A stretch of DNA of 56,498 nt from Clostridia bacterium (GTDB taxonomy: Bacteria; Bacillota; Clostridia; Oscillospirales; Acutalibacteraceae). The first letter of the stretch is position 1; each line of letters begins with the position of its first letter. Below the pieces are notes generated by a model. It did not search any database. It saw only the letters and a program-made list of their open reading frames with translations, and was not told the DNA's origin. The DNA lies in the NCBI GenBank assembly GCA_017473165.1, contig JAFUNA010000011.1, forward strand, positions 1 to 56,498. The letters are read 5' to 3'. The position numbers and the translations under genes were made by a program. This document shows positions 36,653 to 47,446 of this stretch, piece by piece.

Positions 36653-37596
36653 TTTACCGCTTGTTTATGCAGGGCAAGAATACAAATCTTATAGCAAAAA
36701 CATTAACGGAACAAGGCATACCCACACCGTCGGGCAGAGCTGTCTGGAAGCAGAAGACCATTGAGAGTATATTGAGAAACGAAAAATATAAAGGGTCCGC
36801 ACTTTTGCAGAAAACCTTCACCGTGGATTTTCTCGAGAAAAAGAAGAAGGCCAACGAGGGTGAAATACCCCAATACTATGTTGAGCACAGCCATCCTGCA
36901 ATCATCGATCCCGAGGAATGGGAGAGCGTTCAGCGTGAGCTGGCACGCAGAAAATCCGACGGCAGAAGAACCAACAATCACAGTCCCTTTTCAGGCAAAA
37001 TCATATGCGGTGATTGAGGTGAAATCTACGGAGCAAAGGTGTGGCATTCCACCGATAAATATCGCCGTAAAATCTGGCAATGCAATGCGAAATTCGATAA
37101 CGAGCACAGGTGCAGCACACCGCATTTGTATGACAAAGAGATTAAAGAATATTTTGTTACGGCATTGAGCAGAGTTATGGCAGACTGTGAAGCCTTGCTT
37201 GATGATATCCGCACCGTTTACAATAAGCTCACCGATTGCACGGCGATTGATGCGGAATATGAGGAGTTGTTTCGTGAATCCGAGGTGGTTGCAGGTCTTG
37301 CTGCAAGGTGCCTTGAGGATAAGATTTCCGATGCAAACAAATATGAGGATTACGCCAACCGCTATGATGAGCTGCAGGAAAGATGCAATAAGCTCCTGAA
37401 AAAGAGGGAAAGACGCCTGCTTCAGGCAGATAAGTTGAACCGATTTATGCTTGAAATACAAGAGCTTGATGAGCTGCATCTGGAATTCAACGAGTCCCTC
37501 TGGCACACAACCGTTGAATCCGTAACCGTTACCGCAGACGAATTCCTTATTTATAAATTCCGAAACGGGGCAGAAATACCCGTGCAGCTGATGTAA
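36649..37596 (+). pseudogene. Large serine recombinase, C-terminal remnant with a nonsense codon
   Basis: Reads as a large serine recombinase lacking the N-terminal catalytic domain. It begins inside the recombinase domain (IYRLFMQGKNTNLIAKTL, GIPTPSGRAVWKQKTIESIL, NEKYKGSALLQKTFTVDFL, then HPAIIDPEEWESVQREL). It continues through a zinc ribbon and a coiled-coil C-terminus to TAA at 37594-37596. An in-frame TGA at 37015-37017 replaces the second Cys of a CGDC zinc-ribbon motif (GKIICGD, stop, GEIYGAKVW). Frames before and after are the same, so one base change explains it. Inactive remnant of a mobile element. Confidence 0.9.
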
Positions 37597-39305: not shown

Positions 39306-40769
39306 TTATTCAACCACAAGTCTTCCGTCAATCTTATGGTCAAGATTCTGATGTGCGGAAAGATATTCGTCAAGTATCTCTCTGCAGGAGGTTGAAAGAA
39401 TTCTCGGTCTGCCGTTTTTGAATATTTCATCATATGAAACCGAGAAAAAGCTTTCAAAGTTTATAAAATGATAATGCTGAAGCCCGATTTTATAGATTTT
39501 GTTGTCATTAATCGGTTCCCCGTTAAGAGAAAAATCCTTGAATTCATGAGTGCTGCGGTTATAAACAACCCTCATTCCCCTTGAAAGCTGATAAAATTCG
39601 CAATGCGAGCCTGTCCAGACCTCATCACGGAGCATAAATTCAATCATCCGCCTGAACTGTTTACCCGTTACCGACAGCATATGGGCTGCATCGTCATACG
39701 CAAAGCACTCGACAAAATCGGAGAAGAGAACAATCGGACCGAGTTCTGTGCTTCTCAGGCTTCCCGAACCGAGAAGCATAACATCAAGTCCGAGGCTTTC
39801 GCACAGTATGTCGGCAAAAAGTCCGCCGATTTCTGTTTCACGGTAGCGTGACGGATGGGTAAGCCGGCGTTTGAATTTCGTAACAAGGCGGCTGTATTTT
39901 TTGTCAGTCTGACCTTTGTAGAATTTAATTATCTTTTCAAGTGCTTCATCTCTCGGGCAGGTTTCTTTGCATATGGGAATGCTCTGCCAGTTATAGCTGT
40001 CAACACGGTTTTCGTCGGTGTTGACGGTTATGTCAAATCTTCCGATTTGATCGGTGCCCGTTCCCGCCTGCACGATAATAATATCGTTTACAACCTCAGG
40101 CTCGGTGATGAAAGTATGCGAATGACCTCCGATGATAATATCCACACCCCACGCAGGGTCAAGCCTTGCGGCAAGCTCTTTGTCTTCCTCAAAGCCGATG
40201 TGTGTAAGAAGAACGGTCAGGTCAACATCAATGGCATTATAGGTGTTACATATTCTTCCGACCTCGCAGGCAGCTTCGTTGATGTCAACAAATGTGCCGA
40301 TAAGTCCGTCTTTTTTTGTAAGCGCAAGCACTTCTTCGGTCAGAATGCCGATAAACAGAATTTTCATTCCGTCAATTTCAGCTATATGGTGAGGCTTGAA
40401 AAGCCTTGCACCGTTTGTTTTTATATAAAGGTTTGCGTTGATAATCGGAAATTTGGCACATTTCTCAATGAACAGGAGGTGTGCAATTCCGTAATCCGCC
40501 TCGTGGTTGCCGACGGTCACAACATCCGGGGCAAGAATATTCATAATTTCGATTGTCGATACTCCCTGAAATTCCGAGTCAATAACAGAGCCTCTGAACA
40601 TATCGCCCGCAACGCAGTAAATGCAGTTTTCAGCTTCCGCTCTGACCTTGTTGACATACCCCGAAAGCATTGAAACTCCGCCCACAAGGCTGCTGTCAAT
40701 TTCCTCGGCAAGAAAATCTCCGTGCATATCGTTTGAATGAAGAATTGTCAGTTTTTTTAATTTTTCCAT
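39306..40769 (-). CDS. 5'-nucleotidase/2',3'-cyclic phosphodiesterase family metallophosphoesterase
   Basis: A 487-residue UshA-like enzyme without a signal peptide. The metallophosphatase domain shows ILHSNDMHGDFLAEE, GDMFRGSV, VGNHEADYG, LTHIGFEEDKE and GGHSHTF, the motif set with metal-binding Asp, His and Asn residues. The C-terminal 5-nucleotidase domain contains ETEIGGLFADILCESLGLDV and FSLNGEPINDNKIYKIG. It hydrolyses nucleotides or cyclic phosphates; a cytosolic location is unusual for the family. It lies 22 nt downstream of the reverse transcriptase gene. Confidence 0.92.
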   Translation of the reverse strand: MEKLKKLTILHSNDMHGDFLAEEIDSSLVGGVSMLSGYVNKVRAEAENCIYCVAGDMFRGSVIDSEFQGVSTIEIMNILAPDVVTVGNHEADYGIAHLLFIEKCAKFPIINANLYIKTNGARLFKPHHIAEIDGMKILFIGILTEEVLALTKKDGLIGTFVDINEAACEVGRICNTYNAIDVDLTVLLTHIGFEEDKELAARLDPAWGVDIIIGGHSHTFITEPEVVNDIIIVQAGTGTDQIGRFDITVNTDENRVDSYNWQSIPICKETCPRDEALEKIIKFYKGQTDKKYSRLVTKFKRRLTHPSRYRETEIGGLFADILCESLGLDVMLLGSGSLRSTELGPIVLFSDFVECFAYDDAAHMLSVTGKQFRRMIEFMLRDEVWTGSHCEFYQLSRGMRVVYNRSTHEFKDFSLNGEPINDNKIYKIGLQHYHFINFESFFSVSYDEIFKNGRPRILSTSCREILDEYLSAHQNLDHKIDGRLVVE

Positions 40770-40791: not shown

Positions 40792-42000
40792 TCAGACATT
40801 ATCAGCATTTTTGAATTTATAATATTCATTCACAAGGTTTCTGTAGCCGAGATTTTTTATGTCCTCGTATCTGAAATTATAGCGTGATTTTGTTCTTTTT
40901 CCCGTTGCGAGATAACGGATGCACTCCTGCATATATTCATCAATCTTTTTCAGAGTTTCATCGGTGTTTATAACAGGGAAAAACCACCGTGTCCACGTCA
41001 GCTCGCTGTAAACGGGATTATCATAAAGCTTTGTGTTGAACCGTTTTACAAAAGCTCTTGCCGCATATTCTCCGGGCAGATTCTTCTTGCTTGCCCACCG
41101 AGAAAGTGACCTTGCTTTTCTTCGCATTTTTGCTTTGAGCTTTTCAAAAGAAACATCATTGATGTCAATTATTCCGTTGTGATAAGAAAAGCCGAGGAAA
41201 GTCCATTTTTCACCCGGCTTTGTTATTGTTTCCTTATCGGGATTGATGGTGAGTTTTTTTGAAAAAAGGCAGTTTTTTATAGCCTTGATGCTTTCGTCAA
41301 GCTCGGATTCATCCTTTGCAAAAACAAGAATATCATCCGAATATCGGATATAGGGAATATTTCGACTGAAGAAATATTCATCAAGCTCACGCAGATAAAA
41401 ATTTGCAAGAAATGCAGATACGGGAACACCTGCCATAATCCCTTTTCGTTCTTCAAGCAATTCACCGTTATACTGCACATACGGATTTCGGAGAAGTGTT
41501 TCAAAAAACAAATATAATTCGGAATCGTCACTTAAAGCTTTTTTTAAATTCGGAAGAAGAATATCAACATCAACCGAGTTGAAATAGTCACTTATATCGG
41601 CTTTGTAGACATATCTGTCATCCAAATCCTTGATTTTCATAACATCCTCTGCGGCTTTTTTTACTCCCGATTCTTTTCGGAAGGAATAAAGATTCGGTGA
41701 AAAAAGATAATCATAATCACGAAGAAGAAAGGAAATCAGCTTTAAAACATAGTTTTCTTCTCTGCCAAAAGTATATACAGCTCTTTTTCTGCCTGCTTTT
41801 GATTTGCTGATAAGCGTTTTTTGCGGAGCTGAAAAGCTTTGATTGATTCTGATTCTGCCTGCAACGGGAAGATATTCCTTGCCGTCAATAAACCTCCGAA
41901 GGTCTGCAGTATCCTTTTCGCTTATGTTTCCCTGCTCAATTTTGTGAATAAAAAAGGCTTCCCATATTTCCTTTTCAAACAGTTTATCAATTACACACAT
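40792..42000 (-). CDS. Reverse transcriptase, group II intron-like subclass of uncertain type
   Basis: A 402-residue RNA-dependent DNA polymerase. RT motifs are KAGRKRAVYTF (palm entry), YSFRKESGVKKA, KADISDYFNSVD with the first catalytic Asp135, GIMAGVPVSAFLANFYLREL, YIRYSDDILVFA with Asp222/Asp223, KLTINPDKE and TFLGFSYHNG, followed by a basic thumb-like helix region. There is no retron VTG motif, no group II maturase X domain or HNH domain, and no intron around it. No ribosome binding site precedes the ATG; a stem-bounded leader does. It is the last gene of an operon with a LuxR-HTH protein and an unknown protein. Possible roles are defence RT, retron-like or domesticated. Confidence 0.85.
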   Translation of the reverse strand: MCVIDKLFEKEIWEAFFIHKIEQGNISEKDTADLRRFIDGKEYLPVAGRIRINQSFSAPQKTLISKSKAGRKRAVYTFGREENYVLKLISFLLRDYDYLFSPNLYSFRKESGVKKAAEDVMKIKDLDDRYVYKADISDYFNSVDVDILLPNLKKALSDDSELYLFFETLLRNPYVQYNGELLEERKGIMAGVPVSAFLANFYLRELDEYFFSRNIPYIRYSDDILVFAKDESELDESIKAIKNCLFSKKLTINPDKETITKPGEKWTFLGFSYHNGIIDINDVSFEKLKAKMRRKARSLSRWASKKNLPGEYAARAFVKRFNTKLYDNPVYSELTWTRWFFPVINTDETLKKIDEYMQECIRYLATGKRTKSRYNFRYEDIKNLGYRNLVNEYYKFKNADNV

Positions 42001-42015
42001 AAATCATTAAATAAA

Positions 42016-42145
42016 AAAACAGAGAGAAAATGATTTAACATCGCAATTTTGCGATACGAAACCGTACACGAAACGGCTGCCTGCAAAACTCATAAAGTTC
42101 CGTGCTGGGTTCTTCACAGGCGCATAAAGCTTTTCTCTCTGTTTT
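42016..42145 (-). ncRNA. Candidate structured RNA directly upstream of the reverse transcriptase
   Basis: AAAACAGAGAGAAAA (42016-42030) and TTTTCTCTCTGTTTT (42131-42145) form a perfect 15-bp stem closing a 130-nt region. Inside is an ATCGCAA/TTGCGAT hairpin (42040-42055) and a GCCTG/CAGGC pair. A second 8-bp option is AAATCATT (42001) with AATGATTT (42029). The right arm ends 10 nt before the stop of the unknown gene; the left arm lies 16 nt before the RT start. In layout it resembles retron or DRT leader RNAs. Confidence 0.55.
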
Positions 42146-42154
42146 AAGCAAAAA

Positions 42155-42670
42155 TTATTTGAGGTTTTCTCTTATTCGGTTAATGACATATCCGCTTTCG
42201 TTTTCCATTCCCTTGAAGAAACGGATGTAAGGAATGCCGTTATCGTCAAGAACCTTGTAAGTTCCTTTTGCAATCATAGAACGGTACTGATTTTTGTTCA
42301 TAACAAGAACTGCAAGTTTAGGCTGAGAACCGTTTGAGAAAAGGTATGAAATCGGGTAGCAGCTAGGATGCGCACTTGCATCAAAGTTTTTGGCGTGAAC
42401 ATTTGTTGAGATTGAATAACCGGGGAAGCTTGCTTCGGTGATAACGGACGCAAAATAACTGTCATCGGTGTTGTATGTTTTCTGAACAAAAGGAGCCGAG
42501 GCAAATGTCTGCGATGACTGTGCATTACGGGCTGCATCGTCAAACTGATGTGCGGTTTTATTGGCAAATTCCGTTACAGAAGGTTTAATAGCTTTGCTGA
42601 TTGCATCACCTACTGCCTTACTTACGCCATCGCTTATTCCTTTTCTCAAAATTCTTTCCAGAAATCCCAT
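42155..42670 (-). CDS. Hypothetical protein, C-terminal endonuclease-like fold suspected
   Basis: A 171-residue protein. The N-terminal 45 residues form an amphipathic helix rich in Ala/Lys (SKAVGDAISKAIKPSVTEFA), and the rest is mixed alpha/beta: SFPGYSISTNVHAKNFD and KLAVLVMNKNQYRSM, then DDNGIPYIRFFKGMENESGY. The ending IPYIRFF-type strand with a preceding Asp recalls nuclease-like folds, but I cannot identify it. AAGGAGG directly precedes its ATG, and it is in the RT operon. Confidence 0.6.
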   Translation of the reverse strand: MGFLERILRKGISDGVSKAVGDAISKAIKPSVTEFANKTAHQFDDAARNAQSSQTFASAPFVQKTYNTDDSYFASVITEASFPGYSISTNVHAKNFDASAHPSCYPISYLFSNGSQPKLAVLVMNKNQYRSMIAKGTYKVLDDNGIPYIRFFKGMENESGYVINRIRENLK

Positions 42671-42682
42671 AAAGGTTCCTCC

Positions 42683-42946
42683 TTATAAATCTTTATATCT
42701 TATCAATATTTGTTTACGGCTTTTTATACCGAGTTTACGGTATATGTTTTTGCAATGGAAATGCACGGAAGAATGTGTAATAAACAATTCCTCTGCTATC
42801 TGTGCCTGCGTTTTGTCGGTAAGAAGATGAGCGAAAACTTCAAGTTCACGCCTCGATAGTTTTTCCAGCTCGGGATAAATTTCAAGCAGCCTCTTATGTT
42901 CGTTTTCTGCCAATGCAATATAATCGAAATAATTCAGTATTCCCAT
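42683..42946 (-). CDS. LuxR-type HTH protein, 87 aa
   Basis: A free-standing LuxR DNA-binding domain. The sequence KLSRRELEVFAHLLTDKTQA, QIAEELFITHSSVHFHCKNI and YRKLGIKSRKQ gives the usual LuxR helix-turn-helix in the C-terminal 60 residues, after a short helical N-terminus. The ATG at 42946 has AGAGGTG 4 nt upstream; the TTG further out overlaps it. It starts the operon with the unknown protein and the RT, and is divergent from the membrane LuxR regulator. Confidence 0.88.
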   Translation of the reverse strand: MGILNYFDYIALAENEHKRLLEIYPELEKLSRRELEVFAHLLTDKTQAQIAEELFITHSSVHFHCKNIYRKLGIKSRKQILIRYKDL

Positions 42947-43025
42947 ACGACACCTCTTCAAGGATAATTATACTTTGTCAAGCTGAAGATGTAACCTGCC
43001 CAATATAGGGGGATTTGACACACAC

Positions 43026-43199: not shown

Positions 43200-43261
43200 A
43201 AAGAATTCAATGATTTTTACGATTTTGCGATGATTTTTCGCAGCAAAGGAAGGTGCGGTTT

Positions 43262-44725
43262 ATGAATCACCCTATTCTCATAGAAAACCAGAAAAAGAGG
43301 AGAGATATTCCGCTTTGGATGCTCGTCTGCTTCTCTATGTTCAGCTTTTGGCAGATGGGATTTATCTTTTATTTCCTTGAGCCGTCCTCGGCAATGGATG
43401 AAAAAATCCCACTCCCCATTAACATAGATTATGGCACCACTCTGACAGCGGTTTGTTATATACTGGGTATCCTTACGATGATCTTTTTGCCGAAGATTAT
43501 CGTGTATACTCAGCGCATTGCCACGGGCGTTGCGCTTCTTTCGGCTATCGCTTTCTTCCTACCTCTGCCAGAGTATATTCTGCGGTTTAACATTTACCTA
43601 CAGATTTTCTGCTGCTGCCTGATGATCAGTTTTGAGACCTTCCTTGTGGTCAACTGCTTTTCCGAAAAAAGCAGTATCAAGTATCTGACCTTCGGCTACG
43701 GGATAGCGGTGTTCCTGATCGCTTTGGTTCAGAATGAGGTTGTGTCGATTCCGTTCTCTGCCTTCCGTTACGCAATGGTGGCGGCGCTTGTGCTTTTGTT
43801 TATCTTCTTCCTCCGTATGCCTGCGGGCAAGGAAAATCTGCCGCAGTTTGTGAAAAAGAGCGACGGTCTTGTCGCTCCGAAGAAGATGATGTGGGGGGCT
43901 TATCTTGTTGCTTTCATTGCTGCGCTGATGGGCGTTGGAGGTCCTGCGATCGCAGGCAAGGTCGAGCACGGCGTATCGATTATGTATTTGGTAGTGGCTC
44001 TTTCATGCTTTACTATGTATTTTCTTCATAAGAAAGCGAACATTCATCCCTTCCGTATGGTGCCCCTGTTTGTCGGACTCGGTGGATTCGGTTTTCTTGT
44101 AATGCTTGTGTCCGCATATGTTCCCGCGCTTTCCTACGTCGCCTGCATACTCATTGGCTTCGGTATGACGGTATGTATGCTCGCTCCGCTTTACGGTGTG
44201 CCGATTATGAAAGCCTATCCGTCAAGATACGTAGCCTCCGCAATTATCGGGCTTGCAATCACGGCGGTTCTTATTCATGCGGTTATTGCCGAGCTGTTCC
44301 TCGGCACACCTGTCGCACTGTATATCTTTTACGCAGTGATTATGGGTGTGCTTGTGTTTGTGTTTATGCAAGTTGAGCCTTTCCTGATGTTTACCCTTCG
44401 CCGTCGCATTGCCGACGATACCGTTCCTGCCGCAGAGGAAAAAGCAGAAGCAGCTCCCGCTATGGAAGCGGAAGCAAAAACCGAGTCTGCAACCGTTTCG
44501 GCAGACGATGCAGATAATCCTCTTGCAAAACTCAGCCCGAAGAAACGTGAGGTTGCGGAGCTTATCTGTCTTGGCTACACTAACAAGGATATTGCAAAAA
44601 CCCTTGTCATTTCCGAGCATACCGTGAAGGATTATGTAAAAGATATTTATTATACTCTGGCGGTTCACAGCCGTTTGGAGCTTGCCGCCCTTGTAAACAA
44701 TTACCGCCTGGCAAACAAGAAATAA
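43262..44725 (+). CDS. Membrane LuxR-family regulator with MFS-like domain
   Basis: A 487-residue fusion. About 12 hydrophobic segments fill residues 20-380 (VCFSMFSFWQMGFIFYFLEP is the first). An Ala/Glu-rich linker (KAEAAPAMEAEAKTESATVS) follows, then a LuxR helix-turn-helix (LSPKKREVAELICLGYTNKD, then VISEHTVKDYVKDIYYTLAV). Such membrane LuxR proteins are common in gut Actinobacteria and Firmicutes and sense unknown small molecules. Codon choice is richer in G+C than in the neighbours, suggesting transfer. The ATG at 43262 has GGAAGGTG upstream; the GTG at 43253 overlaps it. Confidence 0.88.
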   Translation: MNHPILIENQKKRRDIPLWMLVCFSMFSFWQMGFIFYFLEPSSAMDEKIPLPINIDYGTTLTAVCYILGILTMIFLPKIIVYTQRIATGVALLSAIAFFLPLPEYILRFNIYLQIFCCCLMISFETFLVVNCFSEKSSIKYLTFGYGIAVFLIALVQNEVVSIPFSAFRYAMVAALVLLFIFFLRMPAGKENLPQFVKKSDGLVAPKKMMWGAYLVAFIAALMGVGGPAIAGKVEHGVSIMYLVVALSCFTMYFLHKKANIHPFRMVPLFVGLGGFGFLVMLVSAYVPALSYVACILIGFGMTVCMLAPLYGVPIMKAYPSRYVASAIIGLAITAVLIHAVIAELFLGTPVALYIFYAVIMGVLVFVFMQVEPFLMFTLRRRIADDTVPAAEEKAEAAPAMEAEAKTESATVSADDADNPLAKLSPKKREVAELICLGYTNKDIAKTLVISEHTVKDYVKDIYYTLAVHSRLELAALVNNYRLANKK

Positions 44726-47358: not shown

Positions 47359-47446
47359 TGGCGGAGAGTTAGGGATTCGAACCCTAGGTGAGTTTCCCCA
47401 CACAGCATTTCGAGTGCTGCACCTTCGACCACTCGGACAACTCTCC
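47359..47446 (-). tRNA. tRNA-Ser (anticodon CGA)
   Basis: An 88-nt tRNA with the CCA encoded. The acceptor stem is GGAGAGT/ACTCTCC, with anticodon loop CTCGAAA (anticodon CGA, reading UCG). A long variable arm (GTGGGGAAACTCAC) marks a class II serine tRNA, and the T loop GGTTCGAATCCC is clear. Confidence 0.97.

What the first reader, a model, noticed from the sequence alone, without database searches (positions are those of the whole stretch)
40792..42145. Reverse transcriptase with a 15-bp stem-bounded leader, in a LuxR-unknown-RT operon
The RT has Asp135 and YSDD and an FLGF-like strand, as in group II types, but no maturase, endonuclease or intron. The 130-nt leader between the unknown gene and the RT is closed by a perfect 15-bp stem and contains further hairpins, and the RT lacks a ribosome binding site. 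That layout recalls retron or DRT RNAs used as templates. The gene beside it, with a possible nuclease-like C-terminus, could be the effector.
Basis: partly seen in the sequence, partly recalled or inferred. Interest (0 to 1): 0.75.

Follow-up and report, generated by a model that had tools for sequence, protein, structure and literature searches.

The report
Reverse transcriptase with its own RNA
This gut-bacterium locus pairs a reverse transcriptase with a structured RNA and a small partner protein whose tail is shared by differently built proteins, including one with a TIR domain, in other bacteria, which looks like an untested relative of bacterial antiviral DNA-making systems.

Summary
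The RT (40792-42000, -) is UG26-class (PADLOC RT_UG26, 562 bits; next model 126), not a group II or retron RT. The leader is a named RNA family for which I saw no function, Rfam RF03026 "RT-5" (82.1 bits, cut-off 45.7). In 394 genomes of the same order all 12 UG26 RTs (E <= 1e-60) lie directly behind an RT-5 RNA; behind the 13th RNA the RT runs off its contig. A pseudoknot is supported at all six pairs by compensatory changes, and the 15-bp outer stem recurs in relatives. The 171-aa gene is a core part: its C-terminal domain occurs upstream of the RNA in 29 of 35 testable loci, looks like a degenerate PD-(D/E)XK fold (modest evidence), and carries exchanged N-termini (short segment, zinc ribbon, TPR+TIR, coiled coil). 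Best reading: a Class 2 DRT-like system in which RT plus RNA make DNA that controls an effector through this domain. DNA synthesis, template and phage defence are inferred. A test for a DRT10/telomerase-like A-B-A' template was negative. LuxR (checked in 17 loci) and the missing ribosome binding site are not family features. My searches showed no functional study of UG26.

The parts
40792..42000 (-). UG26-class reverse transcriptase, 402 aa (YSDD 220-223)
   Evidence: PADLOC RT_UG26 562.4 bits, E 1.1e-169, next model 125.6 bits; RVT_1; 36 RTs aligned
42026..42125 (-). RT-5 RNA core (Rfam RF03026)
   Evidence: 82.1 bits against gathering 45.7, model positions 1-104
42016..42145 (-). Full ncRNA unit bounded by the perfect 15-bp outer stem P1 (42131-42145 with 42016-42030); the U-rich 3' strand is terminator-like (inference)
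   Evidence: sequence; pairing against shuffled and swapped flanks in 34 loci
42116..42121 (-). Pseudoknot 5' strand (GCCUGU), pairs with 42079-42084 (GCAGGC)
   Evidence: 6 of 6 pairs with both-sided changes, all 204 cells paired in 34 sequences
42079..42084 (-). Pseudoknot 3' strand in the apical loop
42031..42039 (-). Conserved unpaired segment (GUUAAAUCA) between the last hairpin and the outer stem; candidate template site by position only
   Evidence: one A (42035) invariant in 34 of 34; position as in DRT10 (PMC12632851); A-B-A' test negative
42155..42670 (-). Partner gene, 171 aa: short N-terminal segment, linker, C-terminal degenerate PD-(D/E)XK-like domain (about residues 65-171)
   Evidence: PADLOC RTasCOG2852 E 2.3e-7; same domain upstream of the RNA in 29 of 35 testable loci; model and fold matches, modest
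42683..42961 (-). Small LuxR/GerE-type regulator, first gene of the operon; accessory, not conserved
   Evidence: PF00196 E 1.2e-16; 3 of 17 loci searched, one of them partial
42967..42995 (-). Possible sigma-70 promoter of the operon (GTTACA-17-TATAAT)
   Evidence: 10 of 12 matches, but 6 sites found in the region against 7.1 expected by chance

Best explanation
A three-part element: UG26 reverse transcriptase, its cis-encoded RT-5 RNA, and a partner protein. SHOWN by sequence: the RNA is structured, with a long outer stem and a covarying pseudoknot, and goes together with UG26 RTs in the genomes searched; the partner's C-terminal domain was found only beside these RNAs in the genomes searched, diverges in step with the RT, and carries exchanged N-terminal parts. 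INFERRED: the RT binds the RNA as an RNP and makes DNA on it, as DRT2, DRT3a, DRT9 and DRT10 do; the partner's degenerate nuclease-like domain binds the RNP or its DNA product; a change in that product during phage infection switches the N-terminal part (TIR in one lineage, a short segment in the window's version) to an abortive-infection output.
For: UG26 assignment. RT-5 RNA. Linkage: UG26 RT in 11 of 394 genomes (12 places, E <= 1e-60), RT-5 in 12 of 394 (13 places); all 12 RTs have RT-5 directly upstream, and behind the 13th RNA about 75 aa of a UG26-like RT run into the contig end (that both calls drew the same 394 genomes I infer from the handles). Pseudoknot 6 of 6 covarying pairs; whole structure 92.4% of 780 cells paired against 76.7% shuffled, 0 of 500 shuffles as high, slid controls 33-39%. 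Partner domain in 29 of 35 testable loci; a 16-row profile hit 10 places in 197 genomes at E <= 1e-4, all 10 beside RT-5 by coordinates, 5 of the 10 being rows of the profile itself. Distances of partner domain and RT correlate, r 0.925, n 23; RNA and RT r 0.852, n 31; 0 of 2000 permutations each, near-copies dropped. Held-out profiles find the domain in the TIR protein L076 (2.8e-19; 9.3e-14 with all eight divergent proteins held out; E for 1000 sequences), in L078 and in the zinc-ribbon types; TIR_2 in L076 at 44 bits, cut-off 28. Within NCBIfam the RT scores higher with Drt2 (73.6) and Drt3a (65.8), both Class 2, than with AbiA (39.5) and Drt3b (24.1), both Class 1 (classes from PMC12632851 and PMC13174585). 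PADLOC ranks UG17 (DRT10) at 111 bits. [quoted passage not shown]
Confidence: 0.6

Rival explanations
1. Telomerase/DRT10-like: the segment between the last hairpin and the outer stem is an A-B-A' template copied repeatedly into tandem-repeat DNA (for the window, a repeat such as TGATTTAA).
For: [quoted passage not shown] PMC12632851). Most of the 34 sequences show UU-rich, AA core, U-rich in that order (rows). UG17 (DRT10) is the fifth-best PADLOC model.
Against: Own A-A' matches are not longer than swapped ones; the segment is conserved in sequence, unlike the poorly conserved DRT10 template loop (PMC12632851); L075 and L078 lack the UU start.
Confidence: 0.25
2. Retron-type: the RNA is an msr-msd and the RT makes branched msDNA; the partner is a retron effector.
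For: The outer stem resembles a retron a1/a2 stem (recalled); RNA and RT are adjacent.
Against: RT scores 60.3 bits with the retron St85 model (cut-off 235) and 562 with UG26; 21 of the 25 PADLOC models shown (of 79) are UG or Drt classes; the only Rfam family at the leader is RT-5, also at E <= 1.
Confidence: 0.06
3. The leader is a cis-regulatory element (attenuator or terminator) that only controls RT expression.
For: The outer stem ends in a U-run in many loci, and GC-rich hairpins follow it in others such as L032 (by eye).
Against: A 6-bp covarying pseudoknot and conserved unpaired bases go beyond a terminator; linkage to one RT class; DRT9 and DRT10 need such RNAs for defence (PMC12632851, PMC12483538 passages).
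Confidence: 0.1
4. The partner is an active nuclease effector (COG2852-like) rather than an adaptor.
For: PADLOC name RTasCOG2852; PD-(D/E)XK-like element order and fold neighbours, modest; the Glu of the ExD motif is kept in 16 of 28 proteins.
Against: The Asp of ExD is absent in 28 of 28, and the Asp of the DF motif in 27 of 28 (L032 has it) by the DUF2726 alignment or 28 of 28 by the DUF559 one; the window's protein has none of the three (ISYLF, LAVLVM).
Confidence: 0.12

Closest known systems
DRT10 (UG17 RT + ncRNA + SLATT protein), PMC12632851
   Same: Three-part layout of RNA, effector gene and RT; structured cis ncRNA with a large central stem; related RT (UG17 fifth-best model)
   Different: Partner has a nuclease-like domain instead of SLATT; the RNA lies between partner and RT, not upstream of the partner gene; a covarying pseudoknot; no detectable A-B-A' signal; no defence data
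DRT9 (UG28 RT + ncRNA making poly-dA), PMC12483538 (passages read)
   Same: cis ncRNA with a conserved U-rich stretch; tyrosines in the RT's C-terminal tail
   Different: The RT-5 stretch is not a pure U-tract (UUUUC or UUCUC in many rows); a dedicated partner protein; UG26 not UG28
Rfam RF03026 RT-5 RNA
   Same: The leader is a member (82.1 bits)
   Different: What cmscan printed names no RT class, partner or function; outer stem and pseudoknot are not in its structure line, which shows nested pairs only; the original description (Weinberg 2017, recalled, not read) may show them
PADLOC RT_UG26 and RTasCOG2852
   Same: RT and partner match these models; the name RTas... suggests that an RT association of the partner is already catalogued (inference from the name)
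   Different: Of 10 partner proteins scanned, RTasCOG2852 matches five (L026, L067, L027, L078, L029) and misses L076 (TIR), L025, L084, L032 and L079 at E <= 0.1; the RNA is not in the names

Membership tests
UG26 reverse transcriptases | Best match to the UG26 profile over the full length | tested here: met
   562.4 bits, 1-398 of the protein on 1-397 of 398
UG26 reverse transcriptases | Catalytic Asp and YxDD intact | tested here: met
   D135, Y220, D222, D223 in 36 of 36
RT-5 RNA (RF03026) | Score above gathering threshold, full length | tested here: met
   82.1 against 45.7 bits, 1-104 of 104
Class 2 UG / DRT systems | RT closest to Class 2 UG RTs | tested here: inconclusive
   Within NCBIfam Drt2 and Drt3a score above AbiA and Drt3b, but TIGR04416 scores higher still; no tree of all classes was built
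Class 2 UG / DRT systems | cis-encoded structured ncRNA | tested here: met
   12 of 12 UG26 loci; covariation
Class 2 UG / DRT systems | ncRNA-templated DNA synthesis | not testable with these tools
   needs cDNA sequencing
Class 2 UG / DRT systems | Antiphage activity | not testable with these tools
   needs plaque assays
DRT10 | A-B-A' template | tested here: not met
   Longest A-A' match own 2.85, swapped 3.03 nt; only the segment before the outer stem was tested, and 2-nt matches, which suffice in some DRT10, cannot be told from chance
DRT10 | SLATT partner | tested here: not met
   The window's partner matches no SLATT model in Pfam, NCBIfam or PADLOC
DRT9/DRT10-type protein priming | Conserved C-terminal Tyr or Ser near the active site | tested here: inconclusive
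   A Tyr lies in the tail of all 35 RTs with a complete tail, by eye, but at no single invariant column; no RT model
Retrons | Retron RT and retron ncRNA | tested here: not met
   60.3 bits against 235 cut-off for St85; no retron RNA in the Rfam scans
Group II introns | Intron RNA and maturase-class RT | tested here: not met
   TIGR04416 117.5 against 300; no intron RNA at gathering thresholds; no maturase domain among Pfam matches
PD-(D/E)XK nucleases (partner C-domain) | alpha-beta-beta-beta-alpha-beta core (order recalled) | tested here: inconclusive
PD-(D/E)XK nucleases (partner C-domain) | Catalytic acids | tested here: not met
   Asp of ExD 0 of 28, Glu 16 of 28, Asp of DF 0 or 1 of 28 by alignment; column choice rests on a weak profile alignment

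The most novel reading that the evidence does not exclude
UG26/RT-5 is a modular DNA-alarm system: the RT-RNA complex makes a DNA product that is read by a dead-nuclease adaptor domain, and that domain has been joined to interchangeable output parts (a TIR domain, zinc ribbons, a short N-terminal segment), much as nucleotide second messengers are read by different effectors in CBASS or Thoeris (recalled comparison).
Probability: 0.3. Interest if true: 0.87.

Novelty: new variant of a known kind. Interest (0 to 1): 0.66.

Why it matters
It gives a named orphan RNA family (RT-5) an RT class and a partner, and shows a constant domain with exchanged N-terminal parts, which I did not meet in the DRT papers I read. 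If the partner reads the RT's DNA product, this makes the open question of how DRT-made DNA triggers an effector directly testable, since the same domain is joined to different outputs, one of them a TIR domain whose activity has standard assays.

Tried and rejected
Group II intron ORF: rejected. Retron: rejected by RT class. LuxR as part of the system: rejected, not conserved in the 17 loci searched. Telomerase-like A-B-A' template in the 3' unpaired segment: tested, not supported. N-terminal segment as an amphipathic membrane peptide: 6 of 21 had under 10% of shuffles as high, so not claimed. Partner homology: PADLOC's COG2852 name was checked against DUF559 (0.4%) and DUF2726 (52.5%); positive control DUF559-DUF2726 95.7%, negative control RT 0.6%; one comparison each, small profiles. 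No relative of the partner among solved structures by sequence up to E 5. The partner matched no Pfam model (at 0.001; best 0.086). UG26 in IMG/VR: the single-protein scan confirmed none; the alignment scan found four RTs at 25-31%. In the phage and plasmid collections all matching records (38; 979; 2138 at E 0.01) are under 60% identical and the listed rows 21-31%, so no close UG26 was seen there. PMC10504277 reports UG26 in cold-seep viruses (two passages), which I did not check. Literature: UG26 (3 papers), RF03026 (0), RT-5 names (0), UG17/UG28/UG27 (9), COG2852 with RT (10 of 20,726 listed), DRT11/DRT12/UG26/UG27/UG18 (20 of 45 listed); no functional study of UG26 among what was listed. 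The NAR papers of 2017 and 2022, under DOIs that I recalled, are not held. Rows dropped: the partner count leaves out L077 and L081, whose contigs begin 136 and 270 nt before the RNA; L004 is taken as the same locus as L027; without L001 and L002 (near-copies of the window) 29 of 35 becomes 27 of 33, and L072, L066 and L028 are near-copies too. RNA counts leave out L001, L002 and L072. For the domain alignment the last 125 aa were used, after cutting 16, 18 and 28 residues from the ends of L076, L078 and L032.

Full report
What is there. On the minus strand of the window lie, in order, a small LuxR-type gene (42683-42961), a 171-aa gene (42155-42670), a leader of about 130 nt (42016-42145) and an RT gene (40792-42000). 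Close copies of the block are in a goat-colon Clostridia MAG (L001, RT 99.5% identical) and a water-deer Oscillospiraceae MAG (L002, 98.5%), so the window is most likely from a ruminant-gut relative of these (inference).

The RT. PADLOC gives RT_UG26 at 562.4 bits over the full length; the next model reaches 125.6 (25 of 79 models shown). Group II RT/maturase (117.5, cut-off 300), Drt2, Drt3a, retron St85, AbiA, Drt4, Drt5 and Drt3b all stay below their cut-offs. Within PADLOC the following UG models are UG27, UG4 and UG17 (125, 117 and 111 bits). Within NCBIfam the Class 2 models Drt2 (73.6) and Drt3a (65.8) score above the Class 1 models AbiA (39.5) and Drt3b (24.1), but the group II model scores above all of them. 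Among solved structures the profile scores GsI-IIC group II RT 116 bits, an RT in entry 9ioa 83 (DRT9, recalled), retron Ec86 55, Drt2 53.5, Drt3a 41 and telomerase 36. So the class UG26 is firm and its placement in Class 2 likely, not proved; I built no tree of all classes. PMC12632851 (sections 4, 5, 9 and 10 read, figure legends in part) and PMC13174585 (passages) describe the Class 2 UG RTs studied so far as using cis-encoded ncRNA templates.

The RNA. The leader is Rfam RF03026, RT-5 RNA, at 82.1 bits. This model found 12 of 394 genomes of the window's order, 13 places; the UG26 protein model at E <= 1e-60 found 11 of 394, 12 places. By coordinates all 12 RTs lie just downstream of an RT-5 RNA; behind the 13th RNA (G109) about 75 aa of a UG26-like RT run into the contig end. 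In another order 21 of 392 genomes have RT-5, and an RT of this alignment follows in each of the 21 (L083 incomplete). In 398 genomes of the phylum two had UG26 at E <= 1e-60, both with RT-5.

RNA structure. I aligned 34 of the 37 loci held, leaving out the near-copies L001, L002 and L072. With the structure line printed (last hairpin left out) plus a pseudoknot that I read from the sequences (GCCUGC of the 5' segment with GCAGGC of the apical loop), 92.4% of 780 cells pair (shuffles 76.7%, 0 of 500 as high; slid versions 33-39%). The pseudoknot has six pairs, each with changes on both sides and no unpaired cell. Three other pairs fail in 22, 15 and 13 of 34 sequences. The alignment was made by MAFFT without the structure, but the structure was read from related sequences, which favours it over slid versions. 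The outer stem (15 bp in the window) was tested apart: own flanks pair with mean -22.2 kcal/mol, swapped -14.2; in 31 of 34 loci at most 1 of 200 mononucleotide shuffles is as good; L080, L081 and L082 are weak. Own pairs do not always beat swapped ones because many strands are alike; 7 of 33 swaps do as well or better for the window.

Template question. [quoted passage not shown] in DRT9 it is a conserved U-rich stretch (PMC12483538, passages). The corresponding RT-5 segment (window 42031-42039 plus the U-rich stem strand) has a conserved AA core with one invariant A. A test of A against A' identity, own against swapped between loci, was negative (2.85 against 3.03 nt). The RNA may still be a template here or elsewhere, but nothing in sequence shows it.

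The partner. Upstream of the RNA, 29 of 35 testable loci encode a protein ending in one and the same domain. Six have RT and RNA without it (L003, L073, L075, L080, L082, L083); two more are cut by contig ends. A 16-row profile hit 10 places in 197 genomes of the order, all beside RT-5 RNAs; five of the ten are rows of the profile. Pairwise distances of partner domain and RT correlate at r 0.925 (n 23) and of RNA and RT at 0.852 (n 31), 0 of 2000 permutations each; shared descent alone gives such values, so they speak for joint inheritance, not for contact. Most N-termini are a short M(G/S)(L/F)(L/F)-type segment, but L025 and L028 carry a zinc ribbon (CxxC pairs; L025 scanned, Pfam scores just below cut-off), L029 cysteine pairs (by eye) and an EF-Tu-D2-like stretch below its cut-off, L078 a likely coiled coil (by eye), and L076, an 876-aa protein, TPR_1 and TIR_2 above their cut-offs. 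Profiles built without the held-out member still find the domain: L076 2.8e-19, L078 3.8e-16, L028 1.2e-13, L029 9.2e-13, L084 1.9e-12, L025 2.2e-12, L079 1.2e-10, L032 1.5e-7 (E for 1000 sequences). With all eight left out at once L076 (9.3e-14), L029 (2.8e-12) and L078 (1.6e-11) stay clear, L028 (3.2e-4), L084 (0.0022) and L025 (0.0033) are weak, and L032 (0.028) and L079 (0.11) are not significant.

Mechanism. I infer that UG26 RT and RT-5 RNA form a complex that makes DNA and that the partner reads complex or product. [quoted passage not shown] The patchy spread (RT-5 in 12 of 394 and 21 of 392 genomes, UG26 in 2 of 398) and the mixed host families on the RT tree fit a horizontally moving defence gene set, but I did not test for defence islands.

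Comparison. It works like DRT9/DRT10 in layout, but I do not file it under DRT10: no SLATT protein and no A-B-A' signal. Membership in UG26 and RT-5 is met. PADLOC's model names suggest that the RT-partner association is already catalogued; the RNA family is already in Rfam. What my searches (10, 47, 48, 49, 96, 97, in the held library, long lists seen only in part) did not show is the link of the RNA with UG26 and the exchange of N-terminal parts on a shared domain.

Noticed in passing
L024 and L025 (G076:C10): One contig carries two UG26/RT-5 systems about 55 kb apart, with different partner types (short N-terminal segment and zinc ribbon).
   Followed up: partly
L076:2945-5575: 876-aa protein with TPR and TIR_2 matches ending in the partner domain, just upstream of RT-5 and the RT.
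   Followed up: partly
L074, L084: RT-5 RNAs with extra sequence in the apical part of the main hairpin (hits of 128 and 155 nt instead of about 100), so that part tolerates insertions.
   Followed up: no
L073:8871-9560: In a locus without the usual partner, a 229-aa probable membrane protein (by eye) ends about 34 nt before the RNA; possibly another effector.
   Followed up: no
39306-40769: 5'-nucleotidase/metallophosphoesterase-type gene starting 22 nt after the RT; of 17 loci searched, found next to the RT only in L001 and, partly, L002.
   Followed up: no
43253-44725: 490-aa gene diverging from the operon, apparently membrane-type (by eye) with a LuxR/GerE C-terminal domain.
   Followed up: no
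37039-37596: Fragment resembling the C-terminal part of a serine recombinase (Zn_ribbon_recom, E 1.1e-4, below cut-off), a possible mobile-element trace.
   Followed up: no
47359-47446: tRNA-Ser (cga), about 4.4 kb from the operon.
   Followed up: no
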